A stretch of DNA of 64,000 nt from Ramlibacter paludis. GTDB lineage: Bacteria > Pseudomonadota > Gammaproteobacteria > Burkholderiales > Burkholderiaceae_C. A program made the position numbers and the translations under genes. This document shows positions 20,464-57,837 of the stretch, piece by piece. The DNA lies in contig NZ_JAKLTM010000005.1 of assembly GCF_022012305.1 (NCBI RefSeq), positions 1 through 64,000 on the forward strand, given 5' to 3'. Positions within the stretch are counted from its first letter, which is position 1. Every line of letters starts with the position of its first letter. Under the pieces are notes generated by a model. The model had not been told where the DNA came from. It saw only the letters and a list, made by a program, of their open reading frames with translations, and made no database searches.

Positions 20464-23184
<2,721 letters not shown>

Positions 23185-44321: not shown

Positions 44322-46637
44322 TCACGCCGCGTTCAACCACTCCCACACCTTCGGCGCCGTCAACGGCATCTGCAAGGTCGGCGCGATGTGCGGCTTGCCC
44401 GCCCGCGCCAGCGCATCGGCCACCGCGTTGACCACGCTCGGCGCCGCACCGATGGTGCCGAGCTCGCCCACGCCCTTCACGCCGAGCGGATTGTTCTTGC
44501 AGGGCACCGTCTCGTTCATCTCGGTCAAGAACTCGCAGGCCACGATGTCCGCGCGCGGCGCGGCGTAATCCATCAGGCTGCCCGTGAGCAGCTGGCCGCT
44601 TTGCGGGTCGTAGACCATCGCCTCGCACAGCGCCTGGCCGATGCCCTGCACCGCGCCGCCATCGAGCTGGCCGCGCACGATCATCGGGTTCACCACGCGG
44701 CCGATGTCGTTCACGCTCGAATACTTCACCACCTGCACCTCGCCCGTCGCCGGATCGAGCTCGACCTCGCTGATGTGGCAGCCGTTCGGCCAGCTGGGCC
44801 CCGCCACCGTGCTCGTGTGGTCGGTGAAGATGCGCCGCTCCGGCTGGCGCGCCGCCACCTCGAACAGCGAGATGCCGACGTCGGTGCCTTTCACCGAGAA
44901 GCGCCCGGCCGCGTAGTCGAGATCGGCAGGCGACGCTTCCAGCGCTTGGCCGGCCAGCTGGCGCGCGGAGTCCAGCGTCTTCTCCGCGCCCAGGTGCAGC
45001 GAGGAGCCGCCGGTGAACAATGAACGCGAGCCCGCGCTGCCGAAGCCGTCGCCACGATCCGTATCGCCCAGGACCACCCGCACCTGCTCCAGCGGCACGC
45101 CGAACACGTCGACCACCAGCTGCGCCAGCGTCGTCGCGATGCCCTGCCCCATCTGGTTGACCGCGGAGAACACCTCGATCACGCCGTCGGCCTTGACGTC
45201 GACGGTGACGCGCTCTTCCAGCACGTTGCCGCCGGTCCACTCGAGGAAGGTGGCGATGCCCAGCCCGCGCAGCTTGCCCGCTGCCTTGCTTTGCGCGGCG
45301 CGCTGCGCGAAGCCGCTCCAGTCGGCCAGCGCCAGCCCCTGGTCCATGATCTTCTCGAACTCGCCCACGTCGTAGACCTGCCCCATCGGGTTCTTGTAGG
45401 GCATCTGCGCCGGCTGGATGAAGTTGCGGCGGCGCAGTTCGACGCGATCGATGCCGGTCTGGCGCGCCGCTTCGTCCATCAGCCGCTCCATGATGAAGAT
45501 GGCTTCCGGCCGGCCGGCGCCGCGGTACGCACCCGTCGAAGCTTCGTTGGAAAGCACCGCCTGGAAGTGGTAGTCCACCACCGGCACGTGGTACACGCTG
45601 GTCTGCACCCACGGCCCGATCAATAAGGGGATCAGCATGCCGGTGGCGGTGGCATAGGCGCCGACGTTGGCGCGCGAGCGCAGCCGCAGGCCGAGGATCT
45701 TGCCGTCCTGCGCCAGCGCCAGCTCGGCCTGCGCGCGCTGGTCGCGGCCATGGAAGGACGAGAGGAATTCCTCGCTCCGATCGGCGATCCATTTCACCGG
45801 CGCCTTCAGCGTCCAGGCCGCCCAGGCGACCGCGGCGTCTTCCGGATAGATGCCGGTCTTCATGCCGAAGCCGCCGCCGACGTCGCCCACCGTCACCCGC
45901 ACTTGCGCAGGCGGCAGGCCCAGGATGTCGTTGGCCAGCGAGTTGCGCACGCCCGAAGGCATCTGGCTGCTCATGCGCAGCGTGAGGCGGCCATCGTCGG
46001 CGGTCCAGGCCAGCACCGAGCGCGGCTCGATGGAAACCGCGGCTACGCGCTGGTTGGTGATGTCCAGCTTCACCACGTGCGCGGCCTGCGCGAAAGCCGC
46101 ATCGGTCGCCTTCGCATCGCCATGGCGCAGCTGCGCGGCGATGTTGCCGGTGGCTTCCTCGTGCACCAGCGGTGCGCCCTCCGCGCTGGCCGCGTCCACG
46201 CCGGTGACCTGCGGCAGTTCCTCGTACTCGACCCAAACTGCCTCGGCGGCATCGCGCGCCTGCTGCAGGGTGTCGGCCACGACGAAGGCCACCGGCTCGC
46301 CCACGTAGCGGACGCGCTCGTGCGCCAGCACGCGGCGGGGCGGGGTCCTCGGCTTCGAGCCGTCGGGCAGCGCCGGCAGGCCGGGAATCGGCTTGACGCC
46401 GGCCGCCGCCAGCTCGGCGCCCGTCACCACCTTGTGCACGCCCGGCATGGACGCCGCATTGGCCGTGTCGATGGCGACGACGCGCGCATGCGGATACGGC
46501 GAGCGCACGAACACCAGCCGTAGCTGGCCCGCGGGAGCGAGATCATCGGTGTACTGGCCGGTGCCCTTGAGCAGCCCTTCGTCCTCGATCCGCTGGACGG
46601 ACTGGCCGCTGCCGAAACGTTGCGCGATGGTGGTCAT
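44322..46637 (-). CDS. Orphan molybdopterin-binding hydroxylase subunit (CoxL/XdhB-like)
   Basis: Large subunit of a xanthine-dehydrogenase-family molybdenum hydroxylase, 771 residues. The first domain (about 20-135) starts RIEDEGLLKGTGQYTDDL; the active-site loop is GAYRGAGRPEA near 372 (form II type, not the AYRCSFR of true CO dehydrogenase), and the catalytic Glu is in GVKGVGELGTIGAAP near 730. The FAD (CoxM) and 2Fe-2S (CoxS) subunits are not adjacent. It lies 40 bases downstream of the M14 peptidase gene on the same strand, so it is probably the last gene of the operon that begins with the NicX-like dioxygenase. The family includes nicotinate, picolinate, quinoline and caffeine hydroxylases. 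Confidence 0.9.
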   Translation of the reverse strand: MTTIAQRFGSGQSVQRIEDEGLLKGTGQYTDDLAPAGQLRLVFVRSPYPHARVVAIDTANAASMPGVHKVVTGAELAAAGVKPIPGLPALPDGSKPRTPPRRVLAHERVRYVGEPVAFVVADTLQQARDAAEAVWVEYEELPQVTGVDAASAEGAPLVHEEATGNIAAQLRHGDAKATDAAFAQAAHVVKLDITNQRVAAVSIEPRSVLAWTADDGRLTLRMSSQMPSGVRNSLANDILGLPPAQVRVTVGDVGGGFGMKTGIYPEDAAVAWAAWTLKAPVKWIADRSEEFLSSFHGRDQRAQAELALAQDGKILGLRLRSRANVGAYATATGMLIPLLIGPWVQTSVYHVPVVDYHFQAVLSNEASTGAYRGAGRPEAIFIMERLMDEAARQTGIDRVELRRRNFIQPAQMPYKNPMGQVYDVGEFEKIMDQGLALADWSGFAQRAAQSKAAGKLRGLGIATFLEWTGGNVLEERVTVDVKADGVIEVFSAVNQMGQGIATTLAQLVVDVFGVPLEQVRVVLGDTDRGDGFGSAGSRSLFTGGSSLHLGAEKTLDSARQLAGQALEASPADLDYAAGRFSVKGTDVGISLFEVAARQPERRIFTDHTSTVAGPSWPNGCHISEVELDPATGEVQVVKYSSVNDIGRVVNPMIVRGQLDGGAVQGIGQALCEAMVYDPQSGQLLTGSLMDYAAPRADIVACEFLTEMNETVPCKNNPLGVKGVGELGTIGAAPSVVNAVADALARAGKPHIAPTLQMPLTAPKVWEWLNAA

Positions 46638-46677
46638 GGCGCGCAGTCTCGCCGATTTCCCGGCCGCTTGCAGGCAA

Positions 46678-47526
46678 TCAGCGCGCCACGGCGCCTTCGC
46701 TCGAGAGACGCGCCGACATCCAGCGCTGGAGGTCGATCCACATCTGCCGCATTTCGGAATCGAGCGGCGTGCGCATGGAGTTGGGCAGCTCGATGGTGAC
46801 GACCGGCACGCCCTTGTGCACGCCGCCGTAGTTGCCGAGCGAGCCCGGGAAGATGCCGACCTGGTCCAGGTAGAGCCGGCCCAGGCGCGAAGGCGGCACC
46901 GAAGGACCGTCGAAATCGAGCACGCCGTACGGGGCGTGGATCGACACGATCAGGTGCGGCTTGTAGCTCTGCATCTGGTCGTGCAGGAAGCGCGACTCCG
47001 GCTCGGAGATCGGCTTGGGTCCGGGCCAGCGGCGCGGGTCCTTGCCGGTGCGCTTCTGCCAGTAGATGGCCGAGTCGCGCTCCCAGTTGGGCGTGGGGAA
47101 GTTGCGGTTGAGGTCGACGCCGCGCGCATTGGTGCGCTTGGGCGGCTGCGCCAGCAGGCCGTCGGGGTTCAGCACGGGCACAAAGCGCCAGTGCACGGTC
47201 TGCGGCAGGTCGAGCTTCTCGTCGGCCGCGAGGCGGATCCAGTGCATGGCCACCGAAGCGGAAGACAGTTCGTCGCCGTGGATCGCGCCGATCACCAGCA
47301 CGCGCAGCCTGGCGTTGTCCTCGCCGACGTCACGCATGTAGAGCGGCGTGCCTTGCACCGAGCGCGCGCCACTGTCGACCAGTTCGGCTTGCTGGCACAG
47401 CGGTTTGCCCATGTTGGGCAGCTTGTGGACGAAGCGGTCGCAGGCCGTCGGCGCGACCATGGGCTCCGCCGAGGCTCCCAGCCCCAGGCCCAGCAAGGCC
47501 AGCGCGCACAGCAGCTTGTTCTTCAC
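46678..47526 (-). CDS. M14 zinc carboxypeptidase family protein, exported
   Basis: Metallopeptidase of 282 residues with a signal peptide (KNKLLCALALLGLGLGASA). Zinc ligands are HGDE near 85 and the His in IVSIHAPYG near 200; GVDLNRNFP near 137 and the catalytic Glu in VVTIELPNSM near 245 complete the M14 site. It resembles the murein-tripeptide amidase MpaA group. The start is GTG, overlapping the preceding stop by 4 bases. In this operon it may release amino acids from amide conjugates in the periplasm; that is inference. Confidence 0.87.
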   Translation of the reverse strand: MKNKLLCALALLGLGLGASAEPMVAPTACDRFVHKLPNMGKPLCQQAELVDSGARSVQGTPLYMRDVGEDNARLRVLVIGAIHGDELSSASVAMHWIRLAADEKLDLPQTVHWRFVPVLNPDGLLAQPPKRTNARGVDLNRNFPTPNWERDSAIYWQKRTGKDPRRWPGPKPISEPESRFLHDQMQSYKPHLIVSIHAPYGVLDFDGPSVPPSRLGRLYLDQVGIFPGSLGNYGGVHKGVPVVTIELPNSMRTPLDSEMRQMWIDLQRWMSARLSSEGAVAR

Positions 47527-48779
47527 GCGTCCTTCTCTCCCGCTTCGTACAAGGTCTCGCGGCCCATGCGATCGAGCACCAGCTCCGCCGTCCAGGGCAG
47601 CATCAGCGCGCCGCAGCGGCTGTCGCGGTACAGCCGCTCCAGCGGCAGGTGCTTCATCATGCTCTGGCCGCCGCAGGTGCGGATGGCCAGCCGGGCGATG
47701 TCGTTGGCGCCTTCCATCACCGTGTAGTGGGCAGCGTACAGGCGCATCTTCTCGTCCTTCGTAGGATCGGGCCGCGCCTCCAGGATCGCCCGCAGGAAGA
47801 TGCTGCGCATCTGCTCCAGCTGGATGCGCATCTGCGCCACCGCGATCTGCTTGGTCGGGTACATGCGGCGCTTGACCGGCGGCTCGCCCGGCACCTCGCC
47901 GCGCAGGTACTGCACCGTGAAGTCGTAGGCCGCGTTGGCAATGCCGAGGTAGGTCGGCGCCAGCGTGAAGAACATCGCCGGCCAGGTCTGCGCGCCCTTG
48001 AAGTAGACCCCGCGCGGCATGAGCTGCTCGTCGTCGCTGACGAACACGTCCTTGAACGTGAGGTTGCGGCTCACCGTGCCGCGCATGCCGAGCGGGTCCC
48101 ATTCGCCGCTGATGGCAAAGCCTTCGCTGCTGGCCGGCACCGCGAGGTACAGCGTGTCGCGCGCGTCGGGATGCTGGTCGCCCTTGTCCTCGGTGCAGAG
48201 CACGCCGTAGTAGTCGGCGGCGCCCGAGAGCGAAGCGAAGATCTTGCGGCCGTTGACGAGCCAGCCGCCCTCGACCTTGCGCGCCGTGGTGCCGAAGGGC
48301 GCACGGCCCGCCGCGGCGGCGCTACCTTCGGAGAAGGGTTGCGCGTAAACGGCGCCGTCGCGCACCACGCGGCGGAAGTGCAGCTCGCGCCGGCGCGCAT
48401 GCTCGCTGCGCTGCTGCTCGGTCATGGGGATGCCGTCGGCCAGCACGCCGGTCCACATCGTCGAACAGATGTGCATGTTGTAGGTGAGCGCAGTGGCGCC
48501 GCAAAAGCGCCCGATCTCGGCGCCCACCATCATGTAGGTGGCGTAGTCGGCGCCCAGGCCGCCATGGCTCTCCGGCACGCACAGCGCCAGCAGGCCGGCC
48601 TCGCGCAGGTCGTCGTAGTTGGCGAAGGGGAAGCTCGCTTCCCGGTCCCATTGCGCTGCGCGCGGCGCGAACTTGTCGCGTCCGAGCCGGTGGGCCAGCG
48701 CCAGCAGCGAGCGCTGCTTCGCGCTCAGCGCGTGGTCGCCGATGGCCGGCGTGAAGCCCAGGTCGGGCATGGCATCCAT
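47523..48779 (-). CDS. Acyl-CoA dehydrogenase-fold flavoprotein lacking the usual catalytic Glu
   Basis: The 418 residues follow the ACAD fold: N-terminal helices (LALCVPESHGGLGADYATYMM near 65), a beta domain (KVEGGWLVNGRKIFASLSGAADYYGVL near 170) and the C-terminal bundle with RTCGGQSMMKHLPLERLYRD near 370. Where acyl-CoA dehydrogenases have Y-E-G-T, this protein has L-P-W-T, so the standard general base is missing. ACAD-fold proteins without it include flavin-dependent monooxygenases that use a separate flavin reductase, and such a reductase is encoded 3 kb away. Some true dehydrogenases carry the base elsewhere, so the activity is open. Confidence 0.85.
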   Translation of the reverse strand: MDAMPDLGFTPAIGDHALSAKQRSLLALAHRLGRDKFAPRAAQWDREASFPFANYDDLREAGLLALCVPESHGGLGADYATYMMVGAEIGRFCGATALTYNMHICSTMWTGVLADGIPMTEQQRSEHARRRELHFRRVVRDGAVYAQPFSEGSAAAAGRAPFGTTARKVEGGWLVNGRKIFASLSGAADYYGVLCTEDKGDQHPDARDTLYLAVPASSEGFAISGEWDPLGMRGTVSRNLTFKDVFVSDDEQLMPRGVYFKGAQTWPAMFFTLAPTYLGIANAAYDFTVQYLRGEVPGEPPVKRRMYPTKQIAVAQMRIQLEQMRSIFLRAILEARPDPTKDEKMRLYAAHYTVMEGANDIARLAIRTCGGQSMMKHLPLERLYRDSRCGALMLPWTAELVLDRMGRETLYEAGEKDA

Positions 48780-48792
48780 CTGATGTTTCCTC

Positions 48793-50025
48793 TCAATCGA
48801 TTGCGCCGCCGAGCGAGCGCAGCACGCCGCGCCAGAGCGCCGCGCGTTCCTGGCTGGGCAAGGGATCCTGCTGGGCGCTGGGTTGCTGCCAGGCCGACGT
48901 CAGCACCATCACGATGCCGCTCGCGGGCTGCACGAACAGGCCCTGGCCGTAGATGCCTTGCATGGCGAAAGTGCGTTCGCGGTAGTTCAGCAGCCAGAAC
49001 TGGTAGCCGTAGCCGACGTTGCGTGTGGCACCGGGACGAAACGCTGAAGGCTGCTTGGCCACATCGGTGGCTTCCAGCAGGTATTCGCGCGGCACGACCT
49101 GGCGCTCGCCGACGCGCCCGTCTCGCGCCAGCAGCAGGCCCAATCGGGCCCAGTCGCGCAGCGTGGCGTTGAAGAAGCCGTGCGCGCCTTCCTGGCCGTC
49201 GCGGCCGACGCGCCAGAATGCGTCGCGCTCCGCGCCCATGGGCTCCCACAGCCAGTCGTGGGTGAGCGCGGCGATGCTGCGCCCGGTGGCACCCACCAGC
49301 ACCCGGCCCAGCACGTCGGTTTCGGCGCTGGCATAGCGGAACACGGCGCCGGCGGGGTCGTGCCTCTCCTGCACGCCGCGCAAGACCGGCAAGGTGCCCT
49401 GGGGCTCGGTGGCGAAGGCCAGCGTCATGCGGGCGATGTCGTCGTTGCCGTCGTAGCGCTCGGTGAAGGTCAGCCCCGAGGACATGCGCAGCAGGTGGCG
49501 GATCGGCGTCTCGCCATACGGCGTGCCTTGCAGTTCCTTCGCGTACTTCTGCGCCGGGTCGTCCAGCGACGCGATGGCGCCCTGCGCCTGCGCGACGCCG
49601 ACCAGCAGCGAAGTGACGCTCTTCGCCATCGAGAAAGAGAGGAAGCGCGCGTCCGGCTGGCGGCCGTAGCGATAGCGTTCCGCCACCACCTGCCCGTCCT
49701 TCAGGATCAGCAAGCCGGTGGCGCGCTGCCGCTCGAGGTAGTCGTCGAGCGTGTAGTCGAGGTTGCGGAAGCGGTAGCGAATGGCCGGTGCGTCCGCCAT
49801 GCGCGGCAGCGGCTGGGGCGCGGTGGAGGCATCGACGCGGCGCACGACGATGCCAGGCACCTGGTCGAGCGCGGAGAACGAGCCCACGCGATAAGGAACC
49901 TGCGCCCAGGTGGTGGCGCCGCCCAGCGGGTAGCCGCGCGCTTGGCCGAGCTGGGCCGCGTCAGGTTCGGCGTGCGCGCAGGCGCCGACCAGGAAGCCAA
50001 CCAGCAGCAACGCACGCATGCGCAT
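48793..50025 (-). CDS. Class C beta-lactamase-fold serine hydrolase, exported
   Basis: The 410-residue product begins with a signal sequence (LLLVGFLVGACAHAEP) that has a near-lipobox before the Cys. The nucleophile motif is SMAK (in ARFLSFSMAKSVTSLLVG near 135); the Tyr motif is YASAET near 225. Such proteins are usually esterases, amidases or peptidases rather than beta-lactamases. It sits 3 bases after the alpha/beta hydrolase gene and 13 before the ACAD-like gene in the same operon. Start could be 50025 or 50019. Confidence 0.87.
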   Translation of the reverse strand: MRMRALLLVGFLVGACAHAEPDAAQLGQARGYPLGGATTWAQVPYRVGSFSALDQVPGIVVRRVDASTAPQPLPRMADAPAIRYRFRNLDYTLDDYLERQRATGLLILKDGQVVAERYRYGRQPDARFLSFSMAKSVTSLLVGVAQAQGAIASLDDPAQKYAKELQGTPYGETPIRHLLRMSSGLTFTERYDGNDDIARMTLAFATEPQGTLPVLRGVQERHDPAGAVFRYASAETDVLGRVLVGATGRSIAALTHDWLWEPMGAERDAFWRVGRDGQEGAHGFFNATLRDWARLGLLLARDGRVGERQVVPREYLLEATDVAKQPSAFRPGATRNVGYGYQFWLLNYRERTFAMQGIYGQGLFVQPASGIVMVLTSAWQQPSAQQDPLPSQERAALWRGVLRSLGGAID

Positions 50026-50028
50026 GGC

Positions 50029-50817
50029 TCAATGCAGCAGCGGCGCCGGCAGCGCCAGGAAATTGAGCAGCAGGCCGTCGAAGTCGTCCGGCGCTTCCAG
50101 GTTCTGCAGGTGGCCGATGCCCTTCATCTCGAGGAAGGTGCCGTACGGGATCGCCTCGGCCATCTTCTTCATCACGGCAGGCGGCGCGTTGCGGTCCTGC
50201 TCGCCGGCGATCAGCAAGGTGGGCACGGTGATGTTCGCCAGGTTGGCACGGCGATCGAAGGTGACCAGGCATTCGAGCGCGCGTCGATACGTAGCCGGCG
50301 GCACCATGCCCATGCAGTGCGTGGCCAGGCGCACGCCTTCGGGCAGGGAGCCGCTGCCGATCATGCGCGGCACCAGCGTCTCGGCCAGCTGCGCCATCGT
50401 CTGCCCCGCATCGAGCGGTGCGGTCCGTTCGGCGATGAAGGCGCGCTGCCAGTCGCCATCGGGCTTGCCGAAGGACGGCGAGGTGCCGCACAGCACCAGG
50501 CGCTTGACCAGGTCCGGGCGCCGCGCGACGACTTCCTGCGCCACCATGCCGCCCATGCTGTGGCCCAGCAGGATCACGTCCTCGCATTGCAGGGCTTCGA
50601 TCAGCGCGATGCAGCTCTGTGCCAGGCCCTTGAAGGTGTAGGGCTCGATCGGCGCGCTGTGGCCGTAGCCGGGCATGTCCCAGGCGACGGCGCGGTAGCC
50701 GGCATTGGCCAGCGTCTCGACCTGCGGCGCGAAGGCCAGGTGGCCGCCGCCGATGCCGTGCAGCATCAGCACGGTGGGGCCGCCGCCCAGCGTCGTGAAC
50801 GCGGGAACGATGCTCAT
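50029..50817 (-). CDS. Alpha/beta hydrolase, candidate N-formylmaleamate deformylase
   Basis: Alpha/beta-fold hydrolase of 262 residues. Oxyanion region MLHGIGGGHLAF near 18, nucleophile elbow LLGHSMGGMVAQ near 90 with Ser as nucleophile, acid region IAGEQDRNAPP near 210 and the catalytic His in MKGIGHLQNLEAP near 238. Its start overlaps the NicX-like gene stop by 4 bases. In nicotinate and picolinate pathways the dioxygenase product N-formylmaleamate is hydrolysed by an alpha/beta hydrolase (NicD) encoded next to nicX, so that assignment is the best guess. Sequence alone does not prove substrate. Confidence 0.85.
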   Translation of the reverse strand: MSIVPAFTTLGGGPTVLMLHGIGGGHLAFAPQVETLANAGYRAVAWDMPGYGHSAPIEPYTFKGLAQSCIALIEALQCEDVILLGHSMGGMVAQEVVARRPDLVKRLVLCGTSPSFGKPDGDWQRAFIAERTAPLDAGQTMAQLAETLVPRMIGSGSLPEGVRLATHCMGMVPPATYRRALECLVTFDRRANLANITVPTLLIAGEQDRNAPPAVMKKMAEAIPYGTFLEMKGIGHLQNLEAPDDFDGLLLNFLALPAPLLH

Positions 50818-51878
50818 GCGACGACCTTGCCCTGGTCGACGACCGTCGCGCCATCGAGCTGCACGGTGCAATGGCGCAAGGGCAGGTCGAAGTGTCCCGG
50901 CGTGTGGCGGCCGGCGACTTCGTTGGCGCCTGTGCTGTACAGGAAGTTGCCGGCAAAGGCGCGCAGCTCGGTGCCGTTGAAGTCGCGCTTGTCGTACAAG
51001 GCCATGCTGTCCCAGCGCGCCCGCGCGTTGAGGCCGTAGCCGACGTGGCTGACCGCATAGGCTTCGCGGTCGCCCCAGGCGGCGATGTAGCTGCGCATCA
51101 GGTCCGCGTCGACGCCCGCGCCTTCGATGCGGGTGACATAGTCGTTCTCCACGCGCAAGGTGACGGGCCGCTCCAGGTAGCGCTTGAAGGTGAGGTTGAC
51201 GTCGCCCTCGGCCAGCACCAGGGTGCCGTTGACGCTGCCCGCGGCCGGAAAGGCCAAGGCCAGGCCACCGGGCCAGTGCGTCACCGTTCCGGGGCGGGTG
51301 GTGTAGCCCCAATTGCCGCCGCTGACGGCGTTCTGGAGCGACACGGTGAGGTCGCTGCCCGCGGGTGAAGTCACGCGCATCTCACGCGCGCCGCGCAGCC
51401 GCTTCACGTGGTCCTTTACCAGCGGCTCCAGCTTGTCGTCCGGCAGCAGGCGCACCAGCGCTTCGGGATGTTCGTTGCTCACGTAGAGGACGCGCGCGCC
51501 GCCCTTCAGGATGGCGGGCAGTTCCGGCGCATGCATGAGGCCTTCGACGGTGCAGTCCACCACCAGTGTGCTCCCCGCGAGGGCGGCGACCACGGGCGCG
51601 ATCCCGCGCAGCACGGGCGAGGCGCCGGTGGAGCGGGCCACCGGCAGATCGGGACTGAATGCGCTGGGCAGGACGAGGCTGAAGGCCTCGGCGCCGAGCC
51701 GGGCCGCGGCCAGCCGCGCCAGTTGCGGCAGCACCGGCCGGCTCTGGCTTTCGCTCAGGATGGCGACGGTATCGCCGCGCTGCACGCCGCAGCGGCCAAG
51801 CACGGCCTCGAACGCGTCCAGCCACGCGGGTTCCAGGGTTTCCTGCAGCATTCCGTTCGAGCTCCGGGGTTGATTCAT
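50814..51878 (-). CDS. nicX: 2,5-dihydroxypyridine 5,6-dioxygenase (NicX) family protein
   Basis: Iron(II) extradiol-type dioxygenase of the M29-like fold, opening 2,5-dihydroxypyridine to N-formylmaleamate. The 354-residue product resembles NicX through its C-terminal half: DNLTF-like core VNLTFKRYLERPVTLRVE, SHVGYGLNARARWDSMAL (His 278), GNFLYSTGANEVAG and TPGHFDLPLRHC (His 329 and Asp 331). The His and the HxD are those that bind iron in characterised NicX. I start at MNQPRSS (51878), since the longer start lies inside the operator palindrome. First gene of a six-gene unit. A related substrate is possible. Confidence 0.8.
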   Translation of the reverse strand: MNQPRSSNGMLQETLEPAWLDAFEAVLGRCGVQRGDTVAILSESQSRPVLPQLARLAAARLGAEAFSLVLPSAFSPDLPVARSTGASPVLRGIAPVVAALAGSTLVVDCTVEGLMHAPELPAILKGGARVLYVSNEHPEALVRLLPDDKLEPLVKDHVKRLRGAREMRVTSPAGSDLTVSLQNAVSGGNWGYTTRPGTVTHWPGGLALAFPAAGSVNGTLVLAEGDVNLTFKRYLERPVTLRVENDYVTRIEGAGVDADLMRSYIAAWGDREAYAVSHVGYGLNARARWDSMALYDKRDFNGTELRAFAGNFLYSTGANEVAGRHTPGHFDLPLRHCTVQLDGATVVDQGKVVA

Positions 51879-51882
51879 AATA

Positions 51883-51896
51883 CATGAAATTTCATG
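51883..51896. promoter_or_regulatory. Perfect 14-bp palindrome between nicX and the flavin reductase
   Basis: CATGAAATTTCATG lies in the 32-base gap between the divergent start codons. Size, AT-rich centre and position fit an operator of a MarR dimer, and a MarR gene is second in the divergent operon. In-frame ATG codons for both strands occur inside it; I treat them as operator rather than as starts. Confidence 0.75.
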
Positions 51897-51910
51897 CAAT
51901 CCGGCTTCCC

Positions 51911-52420
51911 ATGAACCCGCCGCTTCGCGCGTCCCCGCCCAGCTTCTCGAGCCAGGAGTTCCGCGCCGCGCTCGGCATGTTCGGCACCGGCGTGACCATC
52001 GTGACCGCCCGTTCGGCCGAGGGCCAGCTGGTCGGCCTGACCGCCAACTCCTTCAACTCGGTGTCGCTGGCGCCGCCCCTGGTGCTGTGGAGCCTGGCGC
52101 GCGCGGCGGCCTCGATGGCCATCTTCAGCGCCGGCTCGCACTACGCGATCAACATCCTGGCGGCCGACCAGAAGCCGCTGGCCGAGCGTTTCGCGCTCAA
52201 GGGTGCGGACCGCTGGAACGGCGTCGGCTGGGACATGGGCGCCGGCGGCGCGCCGCTGCTGCACGGCGCGGCCGCGACCTTCGAATGCTTCAACCGCAGC
52301 CGCTACGAGGAAGGCGACCACGTCATCTTCGTCGGCGAAGTCGAGCGCTGCGCGCACCGCGCCGGCGCGACGCCGCTGCTGTTCCACGGCGGCCGCTATT
52401 TCACGGAGCTGCCGCTGTGA
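51911..52420 (+). CDS. Flavin reductase domain protein (HpaC/DIM6 type)
   Basis: NAD(P)H:flavin oxidoreductase of 169 residues that probably supplies FMNH2 or FADH2 to a monooxygenase. Core motifs are FRAALGMFGTGVTIVTARS near 20, GLTANSFNSVSLAPPLVLWSL near 45, HYAINILAADQ near 80, and the C-terminal HVIFVGEVERC and LLFHGGRYFTEL. I start at MNPPLRA (51911). The matching oxygenase is not adjacent; the ACAD-like protein at 47523-48779 in the divergent operon is the best candidate. It overlaps the MarR gene by 4 bases. Confidence 0.9.
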   Translation: MNPPLRASPPSFSSQEFRAALGMFGTGVTIVTARSAEGQLVGLTANSFNSVSLAPPLVLWSLARAAASMAIFSAGSHYAINILAADQKPLAERFALKGADRWNGVGWDMGAGGAPLLHGAAATFECFNRSRYEEGDHVIFVGEVERCAHRAGATPLLFHGGRYFTELPL

Positions 52421-52845
52421 GCGCGCGGTTCGTCGACGGCTATCTCGGCTACCTGCTGGGCCAGGCGAACCACGCGCTGTACAAGGACTTCGACAGCCAG
52501 GTGCGTGCCGCGGGGCTGAGCATGATCGAGTGGCGCGTGCTGGCGACGCTGCACGACAGCCCGCCGCTGACGGTGAGCCAGCTGGCGCAGGAGGTGCTGT
52601 CCAAGCAACCGACGGTGACCAAGCTCGTGCAGCGGATGGCCGACCAGGACTGGCTGGACCTGCTGGCCGATCCCATGGACCAGCGGCGCACCCTGGTGAC
52701 CGTGGGCGCGGCCGGCCGCAAGCTGGTGCGCCCCTTGCTGGAGAAAGCACGCACGCACGAAGCGCAGATGCTGCGCACGCTGGAGGTGTCGGAGCAGGCG
52801 GCGTTGAAGAAGCTGCTGGCGAAGCTGGCGGGTATCGCCTCTTAA
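52417..52845 (+). CDS. MarR family transcriptional regulator
   Basis: The 142 residues form a winged-helix MarR dimer subunit: GLSMIEWRVLATLHDSPPLTVSQLAQEVLSKQPTVTKLVQRM (HTH) and DQRRTLVTVGAAGRKL (wing). The start is GTG, overlapping the flavin reductase stop. Catabolic clusters for nicotinate (NicR) and picolinate (PicR) use MarR repressors, and the palindrome at 51883-51896 is the likely operator for both divergent units. Confidence 0.9.
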   Translation: MSARFVDGYLGYLLGQANHALYKDFDSQVRAAGLSMIEWRVLATLHDSPPLTVSQLAQEVLSKQPTVTKLVQRMADQDWLDLLADPMDQRRTLVTVGAAGRKLVRPLLEKARTHEAQMLRTLEVSEQAALKKLLAKLAGIAS

Positions 52846-52862
52846 CTCGCTACGATGGCTGG

Positions 52863-53801
52863 ATGCAGGAAAGAAAAGCCCACCTCGACACCCTCGCCGT
52901 CTCCCTGCTCCTCGCCTGCTGCCTGTTCTGGGGCTTCCAGCAGATCCTGATCAAGGCCACCGTGGCCGAAGTGCCGCCGCTGTGGCAAGCCTCGATCCGC
53001 TTTGCCGGCGCCACGGCGCTGCTGTGGCTGTGGTGCGCGTGGCGCAAGGTGCCCCTGTTCGCGCGCGACGGCACGTTGCGCGCCGGACTGCTCGCGGGTG
53101 CGCTGTTCGCCACCGAGTTCGCCTGCATCTACCTGGGGCTGCGCGACACCGCGGCCTCGCGGCTGACGGTCTTCCTCTACACCTCGCCCTTCGTCGTGGC
53201 GCTGTTGCTGCCGCGCTTCGTGCCGGCGGAGAAGCTGCGGCCCGTGCAATGGACCGGCCTGGTGATCGCCTTCGTCGCCGTCGCCTTTGCCTTCAGCGAG
53301 GGCTTTGCCGGCCACAGCACGCCCAAGCAATTGCGCGGTGACGCGCTCGCGTTGGCGGCAGGCGTCTTCTGGGGCTCGACGACCCTGGTGATCCGCGGCT
53401 CGGCGCTCGCCACCGCCAGCGCGGAGAAGACGCTGTTCTACCAGGTGGCCGTCACGGCGGTGGTCGCGCCGCTGCTCTCCCTGCTGCTCGGCGAAGCGTG
53501 GTCACTGGATTATTCCGGCCAGGCCTGGAGCTCCCTGGCCCTGCAGACCGCCATCGGCGCCTTCGCCAGCTACCTCGCCTGGATGTGGATGCTGCGGCAC
53601 TACGCGGCCACGCAGCTGTCGTCCTTCACCTTCCTCACGCCCATGTTCGCGCTGCTGTTCGGCGTGCTGGTGCTGCACGAAGCGTTGACGCTGCAACTCG
53701 TGCTGGCGCTGGCGGGCGTGGCCGTGGGCATCGTGCTGGTGAACCGCAAGAGCCTCAGGCCGGCATCCCGGCCTGGTGCGGCGGCCGCACCGGGATCCTG
53801 A
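52863..53801 (+). CDS. DMT superfamily (EamA) transporter
   Basis: Ten-helix carrier of 312 residues with two EamA repeats (about 15-145 and 160-290). It begins MQERKAHLDTLAVSLLLACCLFWG and has the typical LTFLTPMFALLFGVLVLHE-like helix 9-10 near 270. It follows the MarR gene by 17 bases and may export a pathway intermediate or the inducer. The last 47 bases overlap the Rieske oxygenase gene on the other strand. Confidence 0.85.
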   Translation: MQERKAHLDTLAVSLLLACCLFWGFQQILIKATVAEVPPLWQASIRFAGATALLWLWCAWRKVPLFARDGTLRAGLLAGALFATEFACIYLGLRDTAASRLTVFLYTSPFVVALLLPRFVPAEKLRPVQWTGLVIAFVAVAFAFSEGFAGHSTPKQLRGDALALAAGVFWGSTTLVIRGSALATASAEKTLFYQVAVTAVVAPLLSLLLGEAWSLDYSGQAWSSLALQTAIGAFASYLAWMWMLRHYAATQLSSFTFLTPMFALLFGVLVLHEALTLQLVLALAGVAVGIVLVNRKSLRPASRPGAAAAPGS

Positions 53802-54861
53802 CGTCCACCGCCTGCGTCGCCGCTTCGGCCTGCTCCTGCGCCACCAGCTGCGAGAACACGCGGCGGAAGTGGGATAGCGCCGCGTCGGCGACCACCGCCA
53901 CCATCTCGAACTGCGGGTCGGCGTCCAGCACCTTCTGCTGCGCTTCGATCAGGTGCTTGTCCTCCATGAAGCCTTCGATCAGGCTCTGGTGCAGCGAGCG
54001 CGAGATGTTGTGGTCCTCGCCTTCGTAGTTGTTCAGGTAGGTCCAGAAGAAGTGCGTGGTGCGGCGCGTCTCCGGCGTCATGAACTGGCAGTTGCGGTAC
54101 TCGCGGCTGCCTTCGCGGTTGCCCTTCTCGGAGCCGCTGCCGGCCGGCGAGAACATCGATTCCAGGAAGAAGATGCCGGGGATGTGCATGTGGCCGATGT
54201 TGCGGCGGTCGACGTGCCTGTCCTTCTCCGCGGCGGGCAGCACCTTGCGGTGGAACGGCGGCGGCGCCGCGTCCATATGCCAGCGCTCGACGCGGAAGCC
54301 GCGCGGCAGCCGCTCCACGTTGACCGGCTTGGTGACGTACGCGTACTCCTCCGAGCCGCCCAGCGTCTTGGTGTGCACGAAGGCCAGGTGCGCGAAGTCG
54401 CTCAAGTTGTCGACGATCAGCAGCCAGTTGGCCTCGTAGTGCATGTAGTCGGGCACGCCCTTCCACTGCGGGTCACGCAGGTAGGGGAAGTCGATGATCT
54501 GCGCGGGGTCGGCCTTCTGCGGGTCACCCATCCAGATCCAGACCAGGTGGTCCTTCTCGACCACCGGGTAGCTCTTCACGCCCAGCTTGGCCGGGATCAC
54601 GTCCTGGCCCGGGATCTGCACGCACTTGCCCGTGGGGTCGAACTTGAGCCCGTGGTACATGCAGCGCACGCAGTCGCCCTCGCGGCGGCCCAGGTGCAGC
54701 GGCACGCCGCGGTGGCAGCAGCGGTCGCGCAGCGCGACGACCTTGCCGCTCTCCGACTTGTAGAGGAGCACCTCCTCTTCGAGGATGGTGCGCGGCAGCA
54801 TCCTGCCGTCGATCAATTCGTGGTCCCAGGCGGCCACGTACCAGCAATTCTTCAGGAACAT
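53755..54861 (-). CDS. VanA-like Rieske non-haem iron oxygenase, alpha subunit
   Basis: Terminal oxygenase of 368 residues starting MFLKNCWYVAAWDHEL. The Rieske cluster ligands are in RCCHRGVPLHLG and CVRCMYHGLKF (about 46-70); the mononuclear iron site is NLSDFAHLAFVHTKTLG near 155. Overall length and the single-subunit form match the vanillate O-demethylase/toluene-sulfonate group, which usually has its own ferredoxin-reductase. None is encoded nearby. A LysR gene is divergent 90 bases away. Aromatic ring hydroxylation or demethylation is likely; substrate unknown. Confidence 0.9.
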   Translation of the reverse strand: MFLKNCWYVAAWDHELIDGRMLPRTILEEEVLLYKSESGKVVALRDRCCHRGVPLHLGRREGDCVRCMYHGLKFDPTGKCVQIPGQDVIPAKLGVKSYPVVEKDHLVWIWMGDPQKADPAQIIDFPYLRDPQWKGVPDYMHYEANWLLIVDNLSDFAHLAFVHTKTLGGSEEYAYVTKPVNVERLPRGFRVERWHMDAAPPPFHRKVLPAAEKDRHVDRRNIGHMHIPGIFFLESMFSPAGSGSEKGNREGSREYRNCQFMTPETRRTTHFFWTYLNNYEGEDHNISRSLHQSLIEGFMEDKHLIEAQQKVLDADPQFEMVAVVADAALSHFRRVFSQLVAQEQAEAATQAVDVRIPVRPPHQAGMPA

Positions 54862-54933
54862 GAGGAGGCTCCGGTGGATGGGACAATCGTACGGAGCCCC
54901 GCGCGGGCGGGCAATGGCGCGCCGTGGCCGCTG

Positions 54934-54951
54934 TGTTCCGAATCCTGAACA
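54934..54951. promoter_or_regulatory. LysR-type box before the LysR gene at 54952
   Basis: TGTTC-N8-GAACA is a perfect 5-bp inverted repeat with LysR-like spacing that ends at the base before the start codon. It probably serves autoregulation and control of the divergent Rieske oxygenase gene. A weaker dyad, GGCTCCG/CGGAGCC, lies nearer the oxygenase start. Confidence 0.55.
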
Positions 54952-55842
54952 ATGAACTGGGACGACTTCGACGCTTTCTGCCAGGTGGTGGACCACGGCG
55001 GCTTCACGGCTGCGGCGCGCGCGCTCGACCGCCCGAAGTCGAGCCTGAGCGCATCGGTCGCGCGGCTGGAAGGCGAGCTGGGCACGCGGCTGCTGGAGCG
55101 CACCACGCGGCAGCTGCGCCTGACCGACGCCGGCGAGACGCTCTACCGCGACATCTCGCGGCCCTTCGCGCAGCTGCGCGAGAGCGCGCAGGAGGCGCTG
55201 GCGCAAGGCGCCGCCGTGCAAGGCACGCTGCGCGTGGCGGCGCCCTACGAGTTCGGCGCCCACCATCTCGCCGCGGTGGCCTGCCGCGTGATGCAGGACC
55301 ATCCGCTGCTGAAGGTCCACATCGACGTGGAACATGCGCGCGTCGCGCTGTTCGAGCGCAACTACGACCTGGTGTTCACCGCGCTGGAGCACAGTTTCGC
55401 GCCGGCGACCGTCGTCACGCGCAGCGTGTATGCGCTGCAGCGCGGCGTGTTCGCGGCGCCGGCGCTACTGGCACGCCATGGGGCTGCGGCAACGCCCGAA
55501 GAGCTGGAAGCGCTGCCGCTGCTGGCGGGTGCGGACGAAGCGTCCTGGACGTTCACCGATGCGTCCGGTGCTGCGGCGTCGCTTGAGATGCGCAACCCGC
55601 GCCTGCGCAGCGGCAACGCAGGCGTGCGGCTGCAGGCCGCGATCGCAGGACTGGGCGTCGCACGCATCACTTCGACCTTCTGCGCGCAGGCCGTTGCCGA
55701 AGGCAAACTCGTGGCGCTCTTGCCGCAATGGAAGTGCGAGCCGCTGAAGATCCATGCCTTGCTGCCGGGCCGGAAGATGGTGCCGGCGCGGGTGCGGGCC
55801 TTCCTGGAGCGCCTCGAGGACGAGGCGCACGGGACGCTATGA
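54952..55842 (+). CDS. LysR family transcriptional regulator
   Basis: The 296-residue product has the HTH at 1-60 (MNWDDFDAFCQVVDHGGFTA, then RALDRPKSSLSASVARLE) and an effector domain. The HTH type resembles the CrgA/aromatic group of Burkholderiales. Divergent from the Rieske oxygenase gene, which is its probable target. Its end overlaps the acetoacetyl-CoA synthetase stop by 6 bases. Confidence 0.92.
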   Translation: MNWDDFDAFCQVVDHGGFTAAARALDRPKSSLSASVARLEGELGTRLLERTTRQLRLTDAGETLYRDISRPFAQLRESAQEALAQGAAVQGTLRVAAPYEFGAHHLAAVACRVMQDHPLLKVHIDVEHARVALFERNYDLVFTALEHSFAPATVVTRSVYALQRGVFAAPALLARHGAAATPEELEALPLLAGADEASWTFTDASGAAASLEMRNPRLRSGNAGVRLQAAIAGLGVARITSTFCAQAVAEGKLVALLPQWKCEPLKIHALLPGRKMVPARVRAFLERLEDEAHGTL

Positions 55843-57837
55843 AGCGCGTGCGCGCGCAAACGCGACGTACCAGTCCATGCAGCCCGGATTGGCCATCGCG
55901 TCGCGGTTGACCACCTTCTCCAGCGGCTGCCCGAGCAGCAGCTTCTTGACCGGCAGCTCCTGCTTCTTGCCGGACAGCGTGCGCGGAACTTCCTCCACCT
56001 GCACGATCTCGTCGGGCACGAAGCGCGGGCTGAGCGCGGTGCGCACGGCACCCGCGATCTTCGCCTTCATCGCCGCGTCGAGTGCGACACCCGGCCGCAG
56101 CACGACGAAGAGCGGCATGTAGCTCTCGCGCCCCAGGTATTCCAGGTCCACGACCAGCGAATCGGTCACCTCGGGCAGCGCTTCGACCGCGCTGTACAAC
56201 TCGCTGGTGCCCATGCGCAACCCGTGGCGGTTGATGGTGGCGTCGCTGCGGCCGTAGATGATGCAGCTGCCGCGCGGGGTGATCTTCAGCCAGTCGCCGT
56301 GGCGCCAGACGCCGGGATAGGTGTCGAAATAGCTGGAGAGATAGCGCTTCTTGCCTTCGTCGTTCCAGAAGTAGAGCGGCATCGACGGCATGGGCTGCGT
56401 GCAGACCAGTTCGCCGACCGCGTCGATGACTGGTTCGCCCTGTTCGTTCCACGCCTCCACGGCGCAGCCGAGCAGGCGGCACTGCATCTCGCCCGGCACC
56501 TGCGGCAGTTCGCGGTTGCCGCCGATGAAGGCGCCGGCGAAGTCGGTGCCGCCGGAGATGTTGCACCACCAGATGTCCGGCACGCCGAGCGCCGCGAACT
56601 GCTGCGTCCCCCAGCGCTGCGCTTCCTCGGACAGCGGCGATCCGGTCGTGCCCAGTGCGCGCACCGTGCGCAGGCCGGGCAGCTGCGTGAGGTCCACGCC
56701 CGCCTTCATGCAATTGGCGAAGAAGGCGGCGCCGGCGCCGAAGAAGGTGACGCCCAGTTCCGCGGCGAAGCGCCACAGCACCGTCCAGTCCGGCCGCTCC
56801 TTGCTGCCGCCCGGGTTGCCGTCGTAGATGCAGCAGGTGGTGCCCAGCAGCAGCCCGGCCATCTGCGCGTTCCACATCACCCAGCCCGTGGAGCTGTACC
56901 AGTGGAAGCGCTCGCCGAAGTTGTTGGGGTCGTAGCTGCAGCCGACGTCGTTGTGCAGGTGCGCCAGCGCCATCATCACCAGCATGGCGCCGCCCTGCCC
57001 GTGGACGATCGGCTTCGGCAGGCCGGTGGTGCCGCTCGAATAGACGATCCAGAGCGGATGCTCGAAAGGCAGCCACAGCGGCTCGAAGGCGTCGACGTCC
57101 GGCCCGCTGCGCGAGACCGCCTGCGCGTAGTCCTCGTGCGGCGGCAGCGCGGCGCCGCTGGTGCCACCGAGGTTGCGCACCACCATCACCTGGCGCACCG
57201 AAGGCAAGGCGGCCTGCAACTGCGCGACCACTTCGCCGCGATCGAAGTCGCGCCCGCCGTAGCTCACGCCATCGCAGGCGATCAGGACCGCCGGCTCGAT
57301 CTGGCGGAAGCGATCGAGCACGGCGTTGGTGCCCATGTCGGGCGCGCAGATGCTCCAGACGCCGCCCAGGCTGCTGACCGCCAGGAAGGCAACCATCGCC
57401 TCGGGAATGTTGGGCAGGTAGGCCGCGACGCGGTCGCCGGGCTGCAGGCCGCGCGCCTTCAGGTGCAGCGCCAGCGAGGCCGCCTGGCGCCGCAGTTCGG
57501 GCCACGTGAGTTCGCGCTGCCGCCCTTTCTCGTCGCGGCTGATCAGCGCCGGCAGGCCGGCCGCGTCCGCCGCCTCGACGTGGCGGAACACCTGGCGCGC
57601 GTAGTTCACCTGGGCGCCTTCGAACCAGCGCGCATCGGGCATCTTTCCCGCGACGACCGAGCGATGCGGCGTTGGCGACTGCAGGCCGAGGTAATCCCAG
57701 ACGCTTTGCCAGAAGGCCGGCAGGTCGCGCACCGACCACTCCCACAGGGCCTGGTAGTCGGCGAAGGCCAGCCCGCGCTCGGCGCGCAGCCAGTCCTGGT
57801 AGCGGCGGATCTGCGGAATGTTGGGTACTGCGCTCAT
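55837..57837 (-). CDS. Acetoacetate--CoA ligase
   Basis: Adenylate-forming enzyme of 666 residues that activates acetoacetate to acetoacetyl-CoA with ATP. Motifs: P-loop YSSGTTGLPKPIVHGQGG near 275, the NFGERFHWYSSTGWVMWN region near 315, VWRHGDWLKITPRGSCIIYGRSD near 520, and PRTLSGKKQELPVKKLL with the catalytic Lys near 630. Length equals that of AACS. I start at MSAVPNIPQI (57837). It is divergent from a TetR gene 54 bases away, whose operator lies in the gap. Use of acetoacetate from PHB or leucine breakdown is the usual role. Confidence 0.93.
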   Translation of the reverse strand: MSAVPNIPQIRRYQDWLRAERGLAFADYQALWEWSVRDLPAFWQSVWDYLGLQSPTPHRSVVAGKMPDARWFEGAQVNYARQVFRHVEAADAAGLPALISRDEKGRQRELTWPELRRQAASLALHLKARGLQPGDRVAAYLPNIPEAMVAFLAVSSLGGVWSICAPDMGTNAVLDRFRQIEPAVLIACDGVSYGGRDFDRGEVVAQLQAALPSVRQVMVVRNLGGTSGAALPPHEDYAQAVSRSGPDVDAFEPLWLPFEHPLWIVYSSGTTGLPKPIVHGQGGAMLVMMALAHLHNDVGCSYDPNNFGERFHWYSSTGWVMWNAQMAGLLLGTTCCIYDGNPGGSKERPDWTVLWRFAAELGVTFFGAGAAFFANCMKAGVDLTQLPGLRTVRALGTTGSPLSEEAQRWGTQQFAALGVPDIWWCNISGGTDFAGAFIGGNRELPQVPGEMQCRLLGCAVEAWNEQGEPVIDAVGELVCTQPMPSMPLYFWNDEGKKRYLSSYFDTYPGVWRHGDWLKITPRGSCIIYGRSDATINRHGLRMGTSELYSAVEALPEVTDSLVVDLEYLGRESYMPLFVVLRPGVALDAAMKAKIAGAVRTALSPRFVPDEIVQVEEVPRTLSGKKQELPVKKLLLGQPLEKVVNRDAMANPGCMDWYVAFARARAS

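What the first reader, a model, noticed from the sequence alone, without database searches (positions are those of the whole stretch)
44322..52845. Candidate N-heteroaromatic degradation system of unusual composition
A six-gene minus-strand unit (NicX-like dioxygenase, alpha/beta hydrolase, class C serine hydrolase, ACAD-fold flavoprotein, M14 peptidase, CoxL-type hydroxylase; gaps from -4 to 40 bases) is divergent from flavin reductase-MarR-DMT. NicX plus alpha/beta hydrolase is the ring-cleavage core of nicotinate and picolinate pathways, MarR repressors control both known pathways, and CoxL-type enzymes hydroxylate N-heterocycles. The known NicF, NicE and NicC are absent, while two exported hydrolases and an ACAD-fold protein are present. 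This combination matches no pathway I know, and may begin with a periplasmic conjugate such as an amide or ester of a pyridine.
Basis: partly seen in the sequence, partly recalled or inferred. Interest (0 to 1): 0.74.

Follow-up and report, generated by a model that had tools for sequence, protein, structure and literature searches.

The report
Unrecognised NicX-type ring-opening gene cluster
A bacterial gene cluster found in many genomes contains a relative of the enzyme that opens the nicotinate-derived pyridine ring, but its altered active site and its gene neighbours suggest that it opens a different, probably indole-like, two-ring compound by a route I could not find described.

Summary
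The NicX-like protein has the NicX fold (TM 0.88-0.90 to 7cn3) and the four iron ligands. But it belongs to a separate clade: of 142 loci sampled, none keeps Glu177, which binds the pyridone N and O in P. putida NicX, and of 118 with 3.5 kb flanks none has NicC, D, E or F. Of 22 control loci, 22 keep Glu177 and 20 have at least one of these genes. The conserved core is MarR, flavin reductase, NicX-like, alpha/beta hydrolase and an ACAD-fold protein that lacks the dehydrogenase bases, best read as a two-component flavin monooxygenase. The two exported hydrolases and the orphan CoxL are accessory (all six genes in 4 of 62 loci). Some divergent members adjoin genes for anthranilate or a second benzene ring (19 of 118, against 1 of 22 controls; not significant, p 0.20). 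Best reading: catabolism of a benzo-fused N-heteroaromatic, most likely indole to indoxyl to N-formylanthranilate to anthranilate. A pyridine substrate is unlikely. Every substrate and reaction is inferred, none shown.

The parts
50814..51878 (-). NicX-like non-heme Fe(II) ring-cleavage dioxygenase (alternative start 51851); Fe ligands H, S, H, D kept; the Glu177 position is Asn (residue 189 of the 354-aa protein, 180 if counted from the alternative start)
50029..50817 (-). PcaD-like alpha/beta hydrolase, proposed deformylase; NicD of the control cluster does not find it
47523..48779 (-). ACAD-fold flavoprotein, proposed group D monooxygenase; acyl-CoA dehydrogenase base positions are Leu394 and (aligned by eye) Met269
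51911..52420 (+). flavin reductase (PF01613), proposed partner of the ACAD-fold oxygenase; resembles the C1 and FerA reductase models below their cut-offs
52417..52845 (+). MarR-type regulator, overlaps the reductase by 4 bases; fused to it in 12 related loci (11 distinct)
51884..51895 (.). perfect palindrome ATGAAATTTCAT between the divergent genes, proposed MarR operator
52863..53801 (+). DMT/EamA transporter, frequently linked (50 of 72)
48793..50025 (-). class C beta-lactamase-family serine hydrolase, exported by eye; accessory (6 of 62 loci)
46678..47526 (-). M14 carboxypeptidase-family protein, exported by eye; accessory (33 of 62)
44322..46637 (-). CoxL-type molybdopterin large subunit without partner subunit genes in the unit; accessory (14 of 62)

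Best explanation
The core (MarR, flavin reductase, NicX-like, alpha/beta hydrolase, ACAD-fold oxygenase) is a catabolic module for a benzo-fused N-heteroaromatic, most likely indole. Proposed steps: (1) flavin reductase plus ACAD-fold oxygenase hydroxylate C3 of indole, giving indoxyl; (2) the NicX-like iron dioxygenase cleaves the HO-C3=C2-N bond, the same bond type that NicX cleaves in 2,5-dihydroxypyridine, giving N-formylanthranilate; (3) the alpha/beta hydrolase removes formate, giving anthranilate; (4) anthranilate enters a CoA-ligase/2-aminobenzoyl-CoA route, or in some alphaproteobacteria a gentisate-type route. MarR represses both arms from the palindrome between them. Shown here: gene content, conserved core, NicX fold and iron site, loss of Glu177, loss of the dehydrogenase base, conserved palindrome, no pyridine-pathway genes found beside it, and second-ring or anthranilate genes beside it in a minority of loci from several lineages. 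Inferred: every substrate, every reaction and the regulation.
For: NicX fold and iron site: TM 0.88-0.90 to 7cn3; H265, S302, H318 and D320 equivalents in 142 of 142 clade sequences. Pocket changed: Glu177 in 0 of 142 (N, V, G, T or I instead), and Gly at the position aligned with Cys76 in 141 of 142 against 1 of 23 low-identity relatives (this loop is poorly modelled and aligned, so weaker). Glu177 binds N1 and O1 of the substrate in P. putida NicX (PMC7910607, passages). Clade recovered as one group, support 0.80. ACAD-fold partner: 103 of 118 against 0 of 22 controls. The nearest solved relatives by sequence are 5gj7 and 5z8t (E about 2e-35); 5z8t is titled 'Flavin-containing monooxygenase'. 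Base residue lost, within RDSRCG(S/A)LMLPWTA kept in nine relatives. Precedent: the ACAD-fold enzyme XiaF with a flavin reductase turns indole into indoxyl (PMC5481743, passages); other ACAD-like proteins form indigo (PMC4577076 passages; PMC6221969 passage with table). Neighbours: kynB-kynU-kynA in L119 and kynA in L170; PRK08255-family monooxygenase in 13 of 118; gentisate-type cupin plus FAH-type gene in 4; acyl-CoA ligase in 44 of 118. The host genome has its own PRK08255-family gene over the cut-off in a run of genes that read by eye as enoyl-CoA hydratase, two acyl-CoA dehydrogenases and RidA.
Against: No enzyme was assayed. Group D monooxygenases oxidise indole promiscuously (PMC5481743 passages), so the fold does not prove the substrate. 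Second-ring or anthranilate neighbours are a minority (19 of 118) and do not differ significantly from controls (1 of 22; Fisher p 0.20, or 0.31 with duplicate loci removed; PRK08255 gene alone 13 of 118 against 1 of 22, p 0.70). Genome-wide, PRK08255 homologues occur in 47 of 47 genomes tested; over the cut-off in 26 of 31 with the cluster and 11 of 16 without. ACAD-fold gene not found in 15 of 118 loci. H189, a substrate-binding residue of NicX, is lost in 5 of 142. Transporter genes (TRAP, ABC, APC, DMT; partly read by eye) beside clusters suggest a charged substrate, whereas indole diffuses. In L156 the cluster's ligase is distinct from a second ligase next to the PRK08255 gene. In 10 loci of the 49-53% subclade a glutamine-synthetase-like gene stands where others have the CoA ligase, hinting at an amine substrate there. 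The exported hydrolases and CoxL have no role in this scheme. The window's cluster has no CoA ligase of its own.
Confidence: 0.42

Rival explanations
1. Pyridine pathway: the NicX-like enzyme cleaves 2,5-dihydroxypyridine from a pyridine, possibly after hydrolysis of a periplasmic conjugate.
For: Same fold and iron ligands as NicX; alpha/beta hydrolase and MarR genes adjacent.
Against: Glu177 absent in 142 of 142 loci; NicC, D, E, F and A not found in 118 of 118 loci; control loci keep Glu177 (22 of 22) and at least one of NicC-F (20 of 22). No close NicE or NicC in the host genome. NicD of the control cluster does not find the alpha/beta hydrolase at the thresholds used.
Confidence: 0.1
2. 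Same chemistry on another two-ring N-heteroaromatic or a carboxylated indole or quinoline (for example a 3-hydroxyquinolone, an indole carboxylate, or an auxin-like acid), imported by the linked transporters.
For: Transporter genes (read by eye in several loci) and a CoA ligase adjoin many clusters; the two best solved relatives of the L119 ligase are named fatty-acyl-CoA synthase and feruloyl-CoA synthetase; anthranilate and second-ring genes in some loci; position 177 varies (N, V, G, T, I), so subclades may differ in substrate.
Against: Known auxin routes use other genes: iac has SDR IacE (PMC7225977, passages), iad has Rieske IadDE (PMC12633357, passages). C3-substituted indoles cannot form the HO-C3=C2-N unit (chemistry, not from a call).
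Confidence: 0.25
3. The cluster consumes anthranilate itself: ligase makes 2-aminobenzoyl-CoA, the ACAD-fold enzyme hydroxylates the thioester and the NicX-like enzyme opens the benzene ring.
For: Adjacency to tryptophan-to-anthranilate genes (L119, L170) and a CoA ligase in 44 of 118 loci; an ACAD fold could bind a CoA ester.
Against: Would be redundant with the PRK08255-family gene or the gentisate-type dioxygenase that adjoins it in 13 and 4 of 118 loci; NicX has been reported to act on 2,5-dihydroxypyridine only (PMC7910607 passages).
Confidence: 0.13
4. The ACAD-fold protein is a true acyl-CoA dehydrogenase and the flavin reductase serves something else.
For: Acyl-CoA dehydrogenase Pfam domains; many dehydrogenases among the best fold matches.
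Against: The positions of the known catalytic bases are Leu394 and Met269 (from; the isovaleryl-type position was recalled and aligned by eye); the flavin reductase gene stays beside the cluster although it changes strand (57 opposite, 11 same strand).
Confidence: 0.07

Closest known systems
NicX, 2,5-dihydroxypyridine 5,6-dioxygenase of P. putida KT2440 (7cn3, 7cnt, 7cup)
   Same: Fold, four Fe ligands (H265, S302, H318, D320) and H105 in 142 of 142, H189 in 137 of 142
   Different: Glu177 absent in 142 of 142; Gly aligned with Cys76 in 141 of 142; a two-residue insertion before H105 and a two-residue deletion after the S302 motif in the sequences compared; no NicC, D, E, F, A found beside it in 118 loci
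Group D two-component flavin monooxygenases (XiaF, IacA, DszC/TdsC, HpaH C2)
   Same: ACAD fold and a linked flavin reductase (class description in PMC5481743 and PMC7225977 passages). The window protein lacks the dehydrogenase base
   Different: Nearest solved relatives by sequence are 5gj7/5z8t; XiaF is not among the 60 best listed; the linked dioxygenase is NicX-like
iif/ind indole clusters (Acinetobacter, Cupriavidus)
   Same: Proposed end product anthranilate; flavin reductase and two-component monooxygenase; 2-aminobenzoyl-CoA route downstream in Cupriavidus SHE (PMC6221969 passages)
   Different: iif uses a styrene-monooxygenase-type (group E) oxygenase, an SDR and the dienelactone-hydrolase-family IifA, with an AraC-type regulator; each gene of the window's core belongs to another family
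p-Hydroxyphenylacetate 3-hydroxylase reductase C1 (NF045919)
   Same: Flavin reductase joined to a MarR-like domain: window reductase and MarR each match one half of this model; fused in 12 related loci
   Different: Separate, overlapping genes in the window; scores (180 and 23 bits) below the curated cut-off of 340

Membership tests
Nicotinate/picolinate-type pyridine pathway (nic, pic) | NicX-type dioxygenase with complete Fe site | tested here: met
Nicotinate/picolinate-type pyridine pathway (nic, pic) | Glu177 that binds N1 and O1 of 2,5-dihydroxypyridine | tested here: not met
   0 of 142 clade-A loci against 22 of 22 controls; one further low-identity copy, in L157, has Gln; residue role from PMC7910607 passages
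Nicotinate/picolinate-type pyridine pathway (nic, pic) | Deformylase NicD, maleamate amidase NicF, maleate isomerase NicE, 6-hydroxynicotinate monooxygenase NicC nearby | tested here: not met
   0 of 118 against 20 of 22 controls with at least one (tblastn, one query each); no close NicE or NicC in the host genome; NicD and NicF not searched genome-wide; names of the control genes (L137) assigned by eye from context, NCBIfam does not name them so
Nicotinate/picolinate-type pyridine pathway (nic, pic) | Molybdenum hydroxylase with Fe-S subunit | tested here: not met
   CoxL only in the unit; no PF00941 on contig C17; NicA-like subunit 0 of 118
NicX-family ring-cleavage dioxygenases | Fold and iron ligands | tested here: met
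NicX-family ring-cleavage dioxygenases | Oxidative cleavage of an N-heteroaromatic ring | not testable with these tools
   needs an assay
Group D flavin monooxygenases | ACAD fold without the acyl-CoA dehydrogenase base | tested here: met
   (second base position aligned by eye)
Group D flavin monooxygenases | Dedicated flavin reductase | tested here: met
   reductase within 3 kb upstream in 68 of 72 loci; pairing itself not assayed
Group D flavin monooxygenases | Hydroxylation with reduced flavin | not testable with these tools
   needs an assay
iif/ind indole degradation cluster | Group E (StyA-like) oxygenase, SDR IifB and IifA | tested here: not met
   the genes of the unit each belong to another family; composition of iif from PMC6221969 and PMC4577076 passages; the rest of the host genome was not searched for iif
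iac/iad auxin degradation clusters | iac: ACAD-fold IacA, reductase IacG, SDR IacE; iad: Rieske IadDE with IadC | tested here: not met
   no SDR in the unit; a VanA-type Rieske gene lies at 53755-54903 outside the unit; compositions from PMC7225977 and PMC12633357 passages

The most novel reading that the evidence does not exclude
A further, so far undescribed aerobic indole pathway in many Proteobacteria, in which a NicX-family iron dioxygenase with a remodelled pocket is an indoxyl 2,3-dioxygenase that yields N-formylanthranilate: the first non-pyridine substrate for the NicX family, and a gene-level basis for a route through N-formylanthranilate, an intermediate proposed in 1953 (there by way of isatin).
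Probability: 0.38. Interest if true: 0.76.

Novelty: new variant of a known kind. Interest (0 to 1): 0.6.

Why it matters
The 2021 structure paper states that NicX had not been reported to act on substrates other than 2,5-dihydroxypyridine (PMC7910607 passages). A large clade with the same iron site, a remodelled pocket and a nearly constant two-component monooxygenase partner is a directly testable second activity. If the indole reading holds, it adds a route to anthranilate beside iif, iac and iad, and fits the review's point that iif cannot be the only indole cluster (PMC6221969 passages). It would also correct annotation: members on Aminobacter and Ensifer plasmids are labelled 'peptidase M29'.

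Tried and rejected
Rejected: (a) the pyridine pathway, on Glu177 and missing Nic genes, and no close NicE/NicC in the host. (b) The six-gene unit as the functional unit: 4 of 62. (c) True acyl-CoA dehydrogenase: base lost. (d) Genome-wide co-occurrence with the PRK08255-family gene as evidence: homologues in 47 of 47 genomes, over cut-off in 26 of 31 with and 11 of 16 without the cluster, so uninformative. (e) Identity of the Cupriavidus indole oxygenase IndA with the ACAD-fold protein: I first suspected this from memory; the review puts IndA in the iif/ind cluster, a different class. Dead ends: no sigma-70-like promoter found; the ligase could not be assigned to a substrate by NCBIfam or PDB; the 2001 paper on the R. 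eutropha HF39 indigo gene is not held, so whether that protein is a member was not tested; a megablast of L119 against plasmids gave three short matches.

Three clade-A loci are the same sequence fetched twice (L033/L115, L055/L117, L081/L156) and are counted twice; without them clade A is 139 loci, 115 with flanks, 100 of these with the ACAD-fold gene. Two controls (L143, L144) have identical NicX proteins. Clades were set by identity to the window protein (49% or more against 44% or less). Neighbours were found by tblastn with one query each and fixed thresholds, so divergent ones may be missed. The gene caller for relatives was my own script and missed the window's DMT gene. In one search, 24 of 142 loci had under 3.5 kb flank on a side and were left out of the neighbour counts. 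Position 308 of NicX could not be aligned consistently between and is not used.
Full report
What is there. Searches confirm six minus-strand genes at 44322-51878 with gaps of 40, -4, 13, 3 and -4 bases, and divergent flavin reductase, MarR and DMT genes from 51911 to 53801. Pfam supports each assignment except the NicX-like protein, which hits no Pfam or NCBIfam model at E 0.001 but matches P. putida NicX (7cn3) at E 1.2e-61. The genome is 5.0 Mb in 21 contigs, with a single such gene. The nearest named relatives are Ramlibacter.

Conservation. Of 387 relatives found in named genomes, the best 80 were kept. Among the 62 with 8 kb downstream, the ACAD-fold gene lies on the same strand in 59, the alpha/beta hydrolase in 50, M14 in 33, CoxL in 14 and the serine hydrolase in 6; all five together in 4. 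Among 72 with 2.5 kb or more upstream, the reductase is found in 68, MarR in 66 and DMT in 50; in the set the reductase lies on the opposite strand in 57 and on the same strand in 11. So the core is MarR, reductase, NicX-like, alpha/beta hydrolase and ACAD-fold; the rest is accessory. In an even draw of 397 proteobacterial-phylum genomes, 42 have a NicX match and 23 of these have one at 50% identity or more to the window protein, in eight family codes. A palindrome ATGAAATTTCAT lies between the divergent genes; it is found with at most two mismatches near the NicX start in 62 of 80 loci, against 0.5% of 400 random stretches. Reductase and MarR genes overlap by four bases and are fused in 12 loci, 11 distinct, the layout of the p-hydroxyphenylacetate hydroxylase reductase C1 (NF045919 matches both halves below cut-off).

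The NicX-like enzyme. AlphaFold2 gives mean pLDDT 85.8 and Foldseek ranks NicX first, TM 0.88-0.90, rmsd about 2 A; the next matches are M29-type aminopeptidases. By identity to the window protein, 142 fall in clade A (49% or more) and 22 in B/C (44% or less). The four iron ligands are kept in 142 of 142 clade-A and 23 of 23 low-identity sequences; H105 in 142 of 142 and H189 in 137 of 142 of clade A. In P. putida NicX, Glu177 bonds N1 and O1 of the substrate and its alanine mutant has strongly reduced activity (PMC7910607, passages). Clade A has Glu177 in 0 of 142 (N, V, G, T or I) and B/C in 22 of 22; a further low-identity copy in L157 has Gln. ACAD-fold gene: 103 of 118 against 0 of 22; any of NicC, D, E, F: 0 of 118 against 20 of 22. 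A FastTree tree, rooted on a B/C sequence, groups the 141 clade-A sequences longer than 300 residues with support 0.80. Position 76 aligns to Gly in 141 of 142 of clade A and 1 of 23 others, but this loop is poorly modelled (pLDDT under 50 at 79-86). In the sequences compared, clade A also has a two-residue insertion before H105 and a two-residue deletion after the S302 motif. The pocket is therefore changed where NicX reads the pyridone, while the iron site is kept.

The ACAD-fold protein. Its best solved relatives by sequence are 5gj7 and 5z8t (E about 2e-35); 5z8t is titled 'Flavin-containing monooxygenase'. In the alignment with short-chain acyl-CoA dehydrogenase the catalytic Glu (recalled position) falls on Leu394, within RDSRCG(S/A)LMLPWTA that is kept in nine relatives; the alternative base position of isovaleryl-CoA dehydrogenase (recalled, aligned by eye) falls on Met269. 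With a linked flavin reductase this fits a group D two-component monooxygenase. The model is of middling quality (pLDDT 77.2), and dehydrogenases and monooxygenases score alike by fold.

What the neighbours say. In some more distant relatives the core adjoins genes for anthranilate or a second aromatic ring: arylformamidase, kynureninase and tryptophan 2,3-dioxygenase in L119 and tryptophan 2,3-dioxygenase in L170; a PRK08255-family monooxygenase/reductase (annotated salicylyl-CoA 5-hydroxylase; I recall that 2-aminobenzoyl-CoA monooxygenase/reductase belongs here) in 13 of 118, of which six are one genus (g124) and two are the same locus; a cupin that matches gentisate and 5-aminosalicylate 1,2-dioxygenase models below their cut-offs, plus an FAH-type gene, in 4; an acyl-CoA ligase in 44. 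In one further genome (G194) NicX and the PRK08255 gene are about 15 kb apart. A second ring-attacking enzyme beside NicX suggests that ring opening by NicX leaves a benzene ring. Against this: one of 22 controls also has a PRK08255 gene nearby, and the contrast is not significant (19 of 118 against 1 of 22 for all such genes, Fisher p 0.20; PRK08255 alone p 0.70); genome-wide the PRK08255 gene does not separate genomes with and without the cluster (26 of 31 and 11 of 16 over cut-off). The host's own copy on contig C15 lies in a run of genes that read by eye as enoyl-CoA hydratase, two acyl-CoA dehydrogenases and RidA.

Mechanism. NicX cleaves the bond between the hydroxyl-bearing carbon and the CH next to nitrogen, giving an N-formyl amide and a carboxylate. 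The two-ring compound that best offers the same HO-C=CH-N unit and leaves anthranilate is indoxyl, the product of indole C3 hydroxylation by ACAD-fold enzymes such as XiaF (PMC5481743, passages). A deformylase would then give anthranilate, matching the number and type of core genes and the CoA ligase. I give this 0.42; benzo-fused N-heteroaromatics as a class I would put near 0.65, pyridine at 0.1. In 10 loci at 49-53% identity a glutamine-synthetase-like gene, with an APC permease in 8 of them, stands where others have the CoA ligase, so substrates may differ within the clade.

Known systems. The iif/ind clusters use a styrene-monooxygenase-type oxygenase, an SDR and IifA (PMC6221969, PMC4577076 passages); iac and iad use other genes (PMC7225977, PMC12633357 passages). 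Ten paper searches, in an open-licence library only and seen as listings, showed no paper that I recognised as describing a NicX-type gene in an indole or anthranilate pathway. [quoted passage not shown] Papers of subscription journals are mostly not searchable here, so prior description cannot be excluded.

Noticed in passing
51884-51895: Perfect palindrome ATGAAATTTCAT between divergent reductase and NicX genes, found with at most two mismatches near NicX in 62 of 80 related loci.
   Followed up: yes
L117, L055, L038, L053, L059, L067, L056, L030, L170, L175, L054, L126: Flavin reductase and MarR are one fused open frame in 12 related loci (L117 and L055 are the same locus), as in the C1 reductase of p-hydroxyphenylacetate hydroxylase.
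   Followed up: partly
44322-46637: CoxL-type large subunit without partner subunit genes in the unit and no FAD-subunit gene on its contig, yet present beside the cluster in 14 of 62 relatives.
   Followed up: partly
53755-57837: VanA-type Rieske oxygenase (16 loci) and acetoacetate-CoA ligase (37 loci; TIGR01217 over cut-off in the window) recur near the cluster among the 82 sequence sets.
   Followed up: no
L135-L154, L193, L194: NicX proteins of the nicotinate-type control clusters mostly have Phe where P. putida NicX has the essential His105 (His in 2 of 22).
   Followed up: no
L157: 9383-10444(-) and 16251-17330(+): One genome carries a clade-A NicX and, about 6 kb away, a second NicX-like gene (34% identity to the window protein, Gln at position 177) next to a cupin-dioxygenase-like gene and a PRK08255-family gene.
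   Followed up: no
20464-23184: Methionine synthase homologue lacking the N-terminal part (matches positions 343-1229 of 1234), i.e. probably a split MetH.
   Followed up: no
30976-33276: 766-aa protein with a partial, below-cut-off match to the anti-phage ATPase IteA model (129 bits against 510).
   Followed up: no
59638-60975: NCS2-family permease close to RutG (673 bits, below the 758 cut-off); a permease cluster read by eye as similar (c14) recurs in 18 loci.
   Followed up: no
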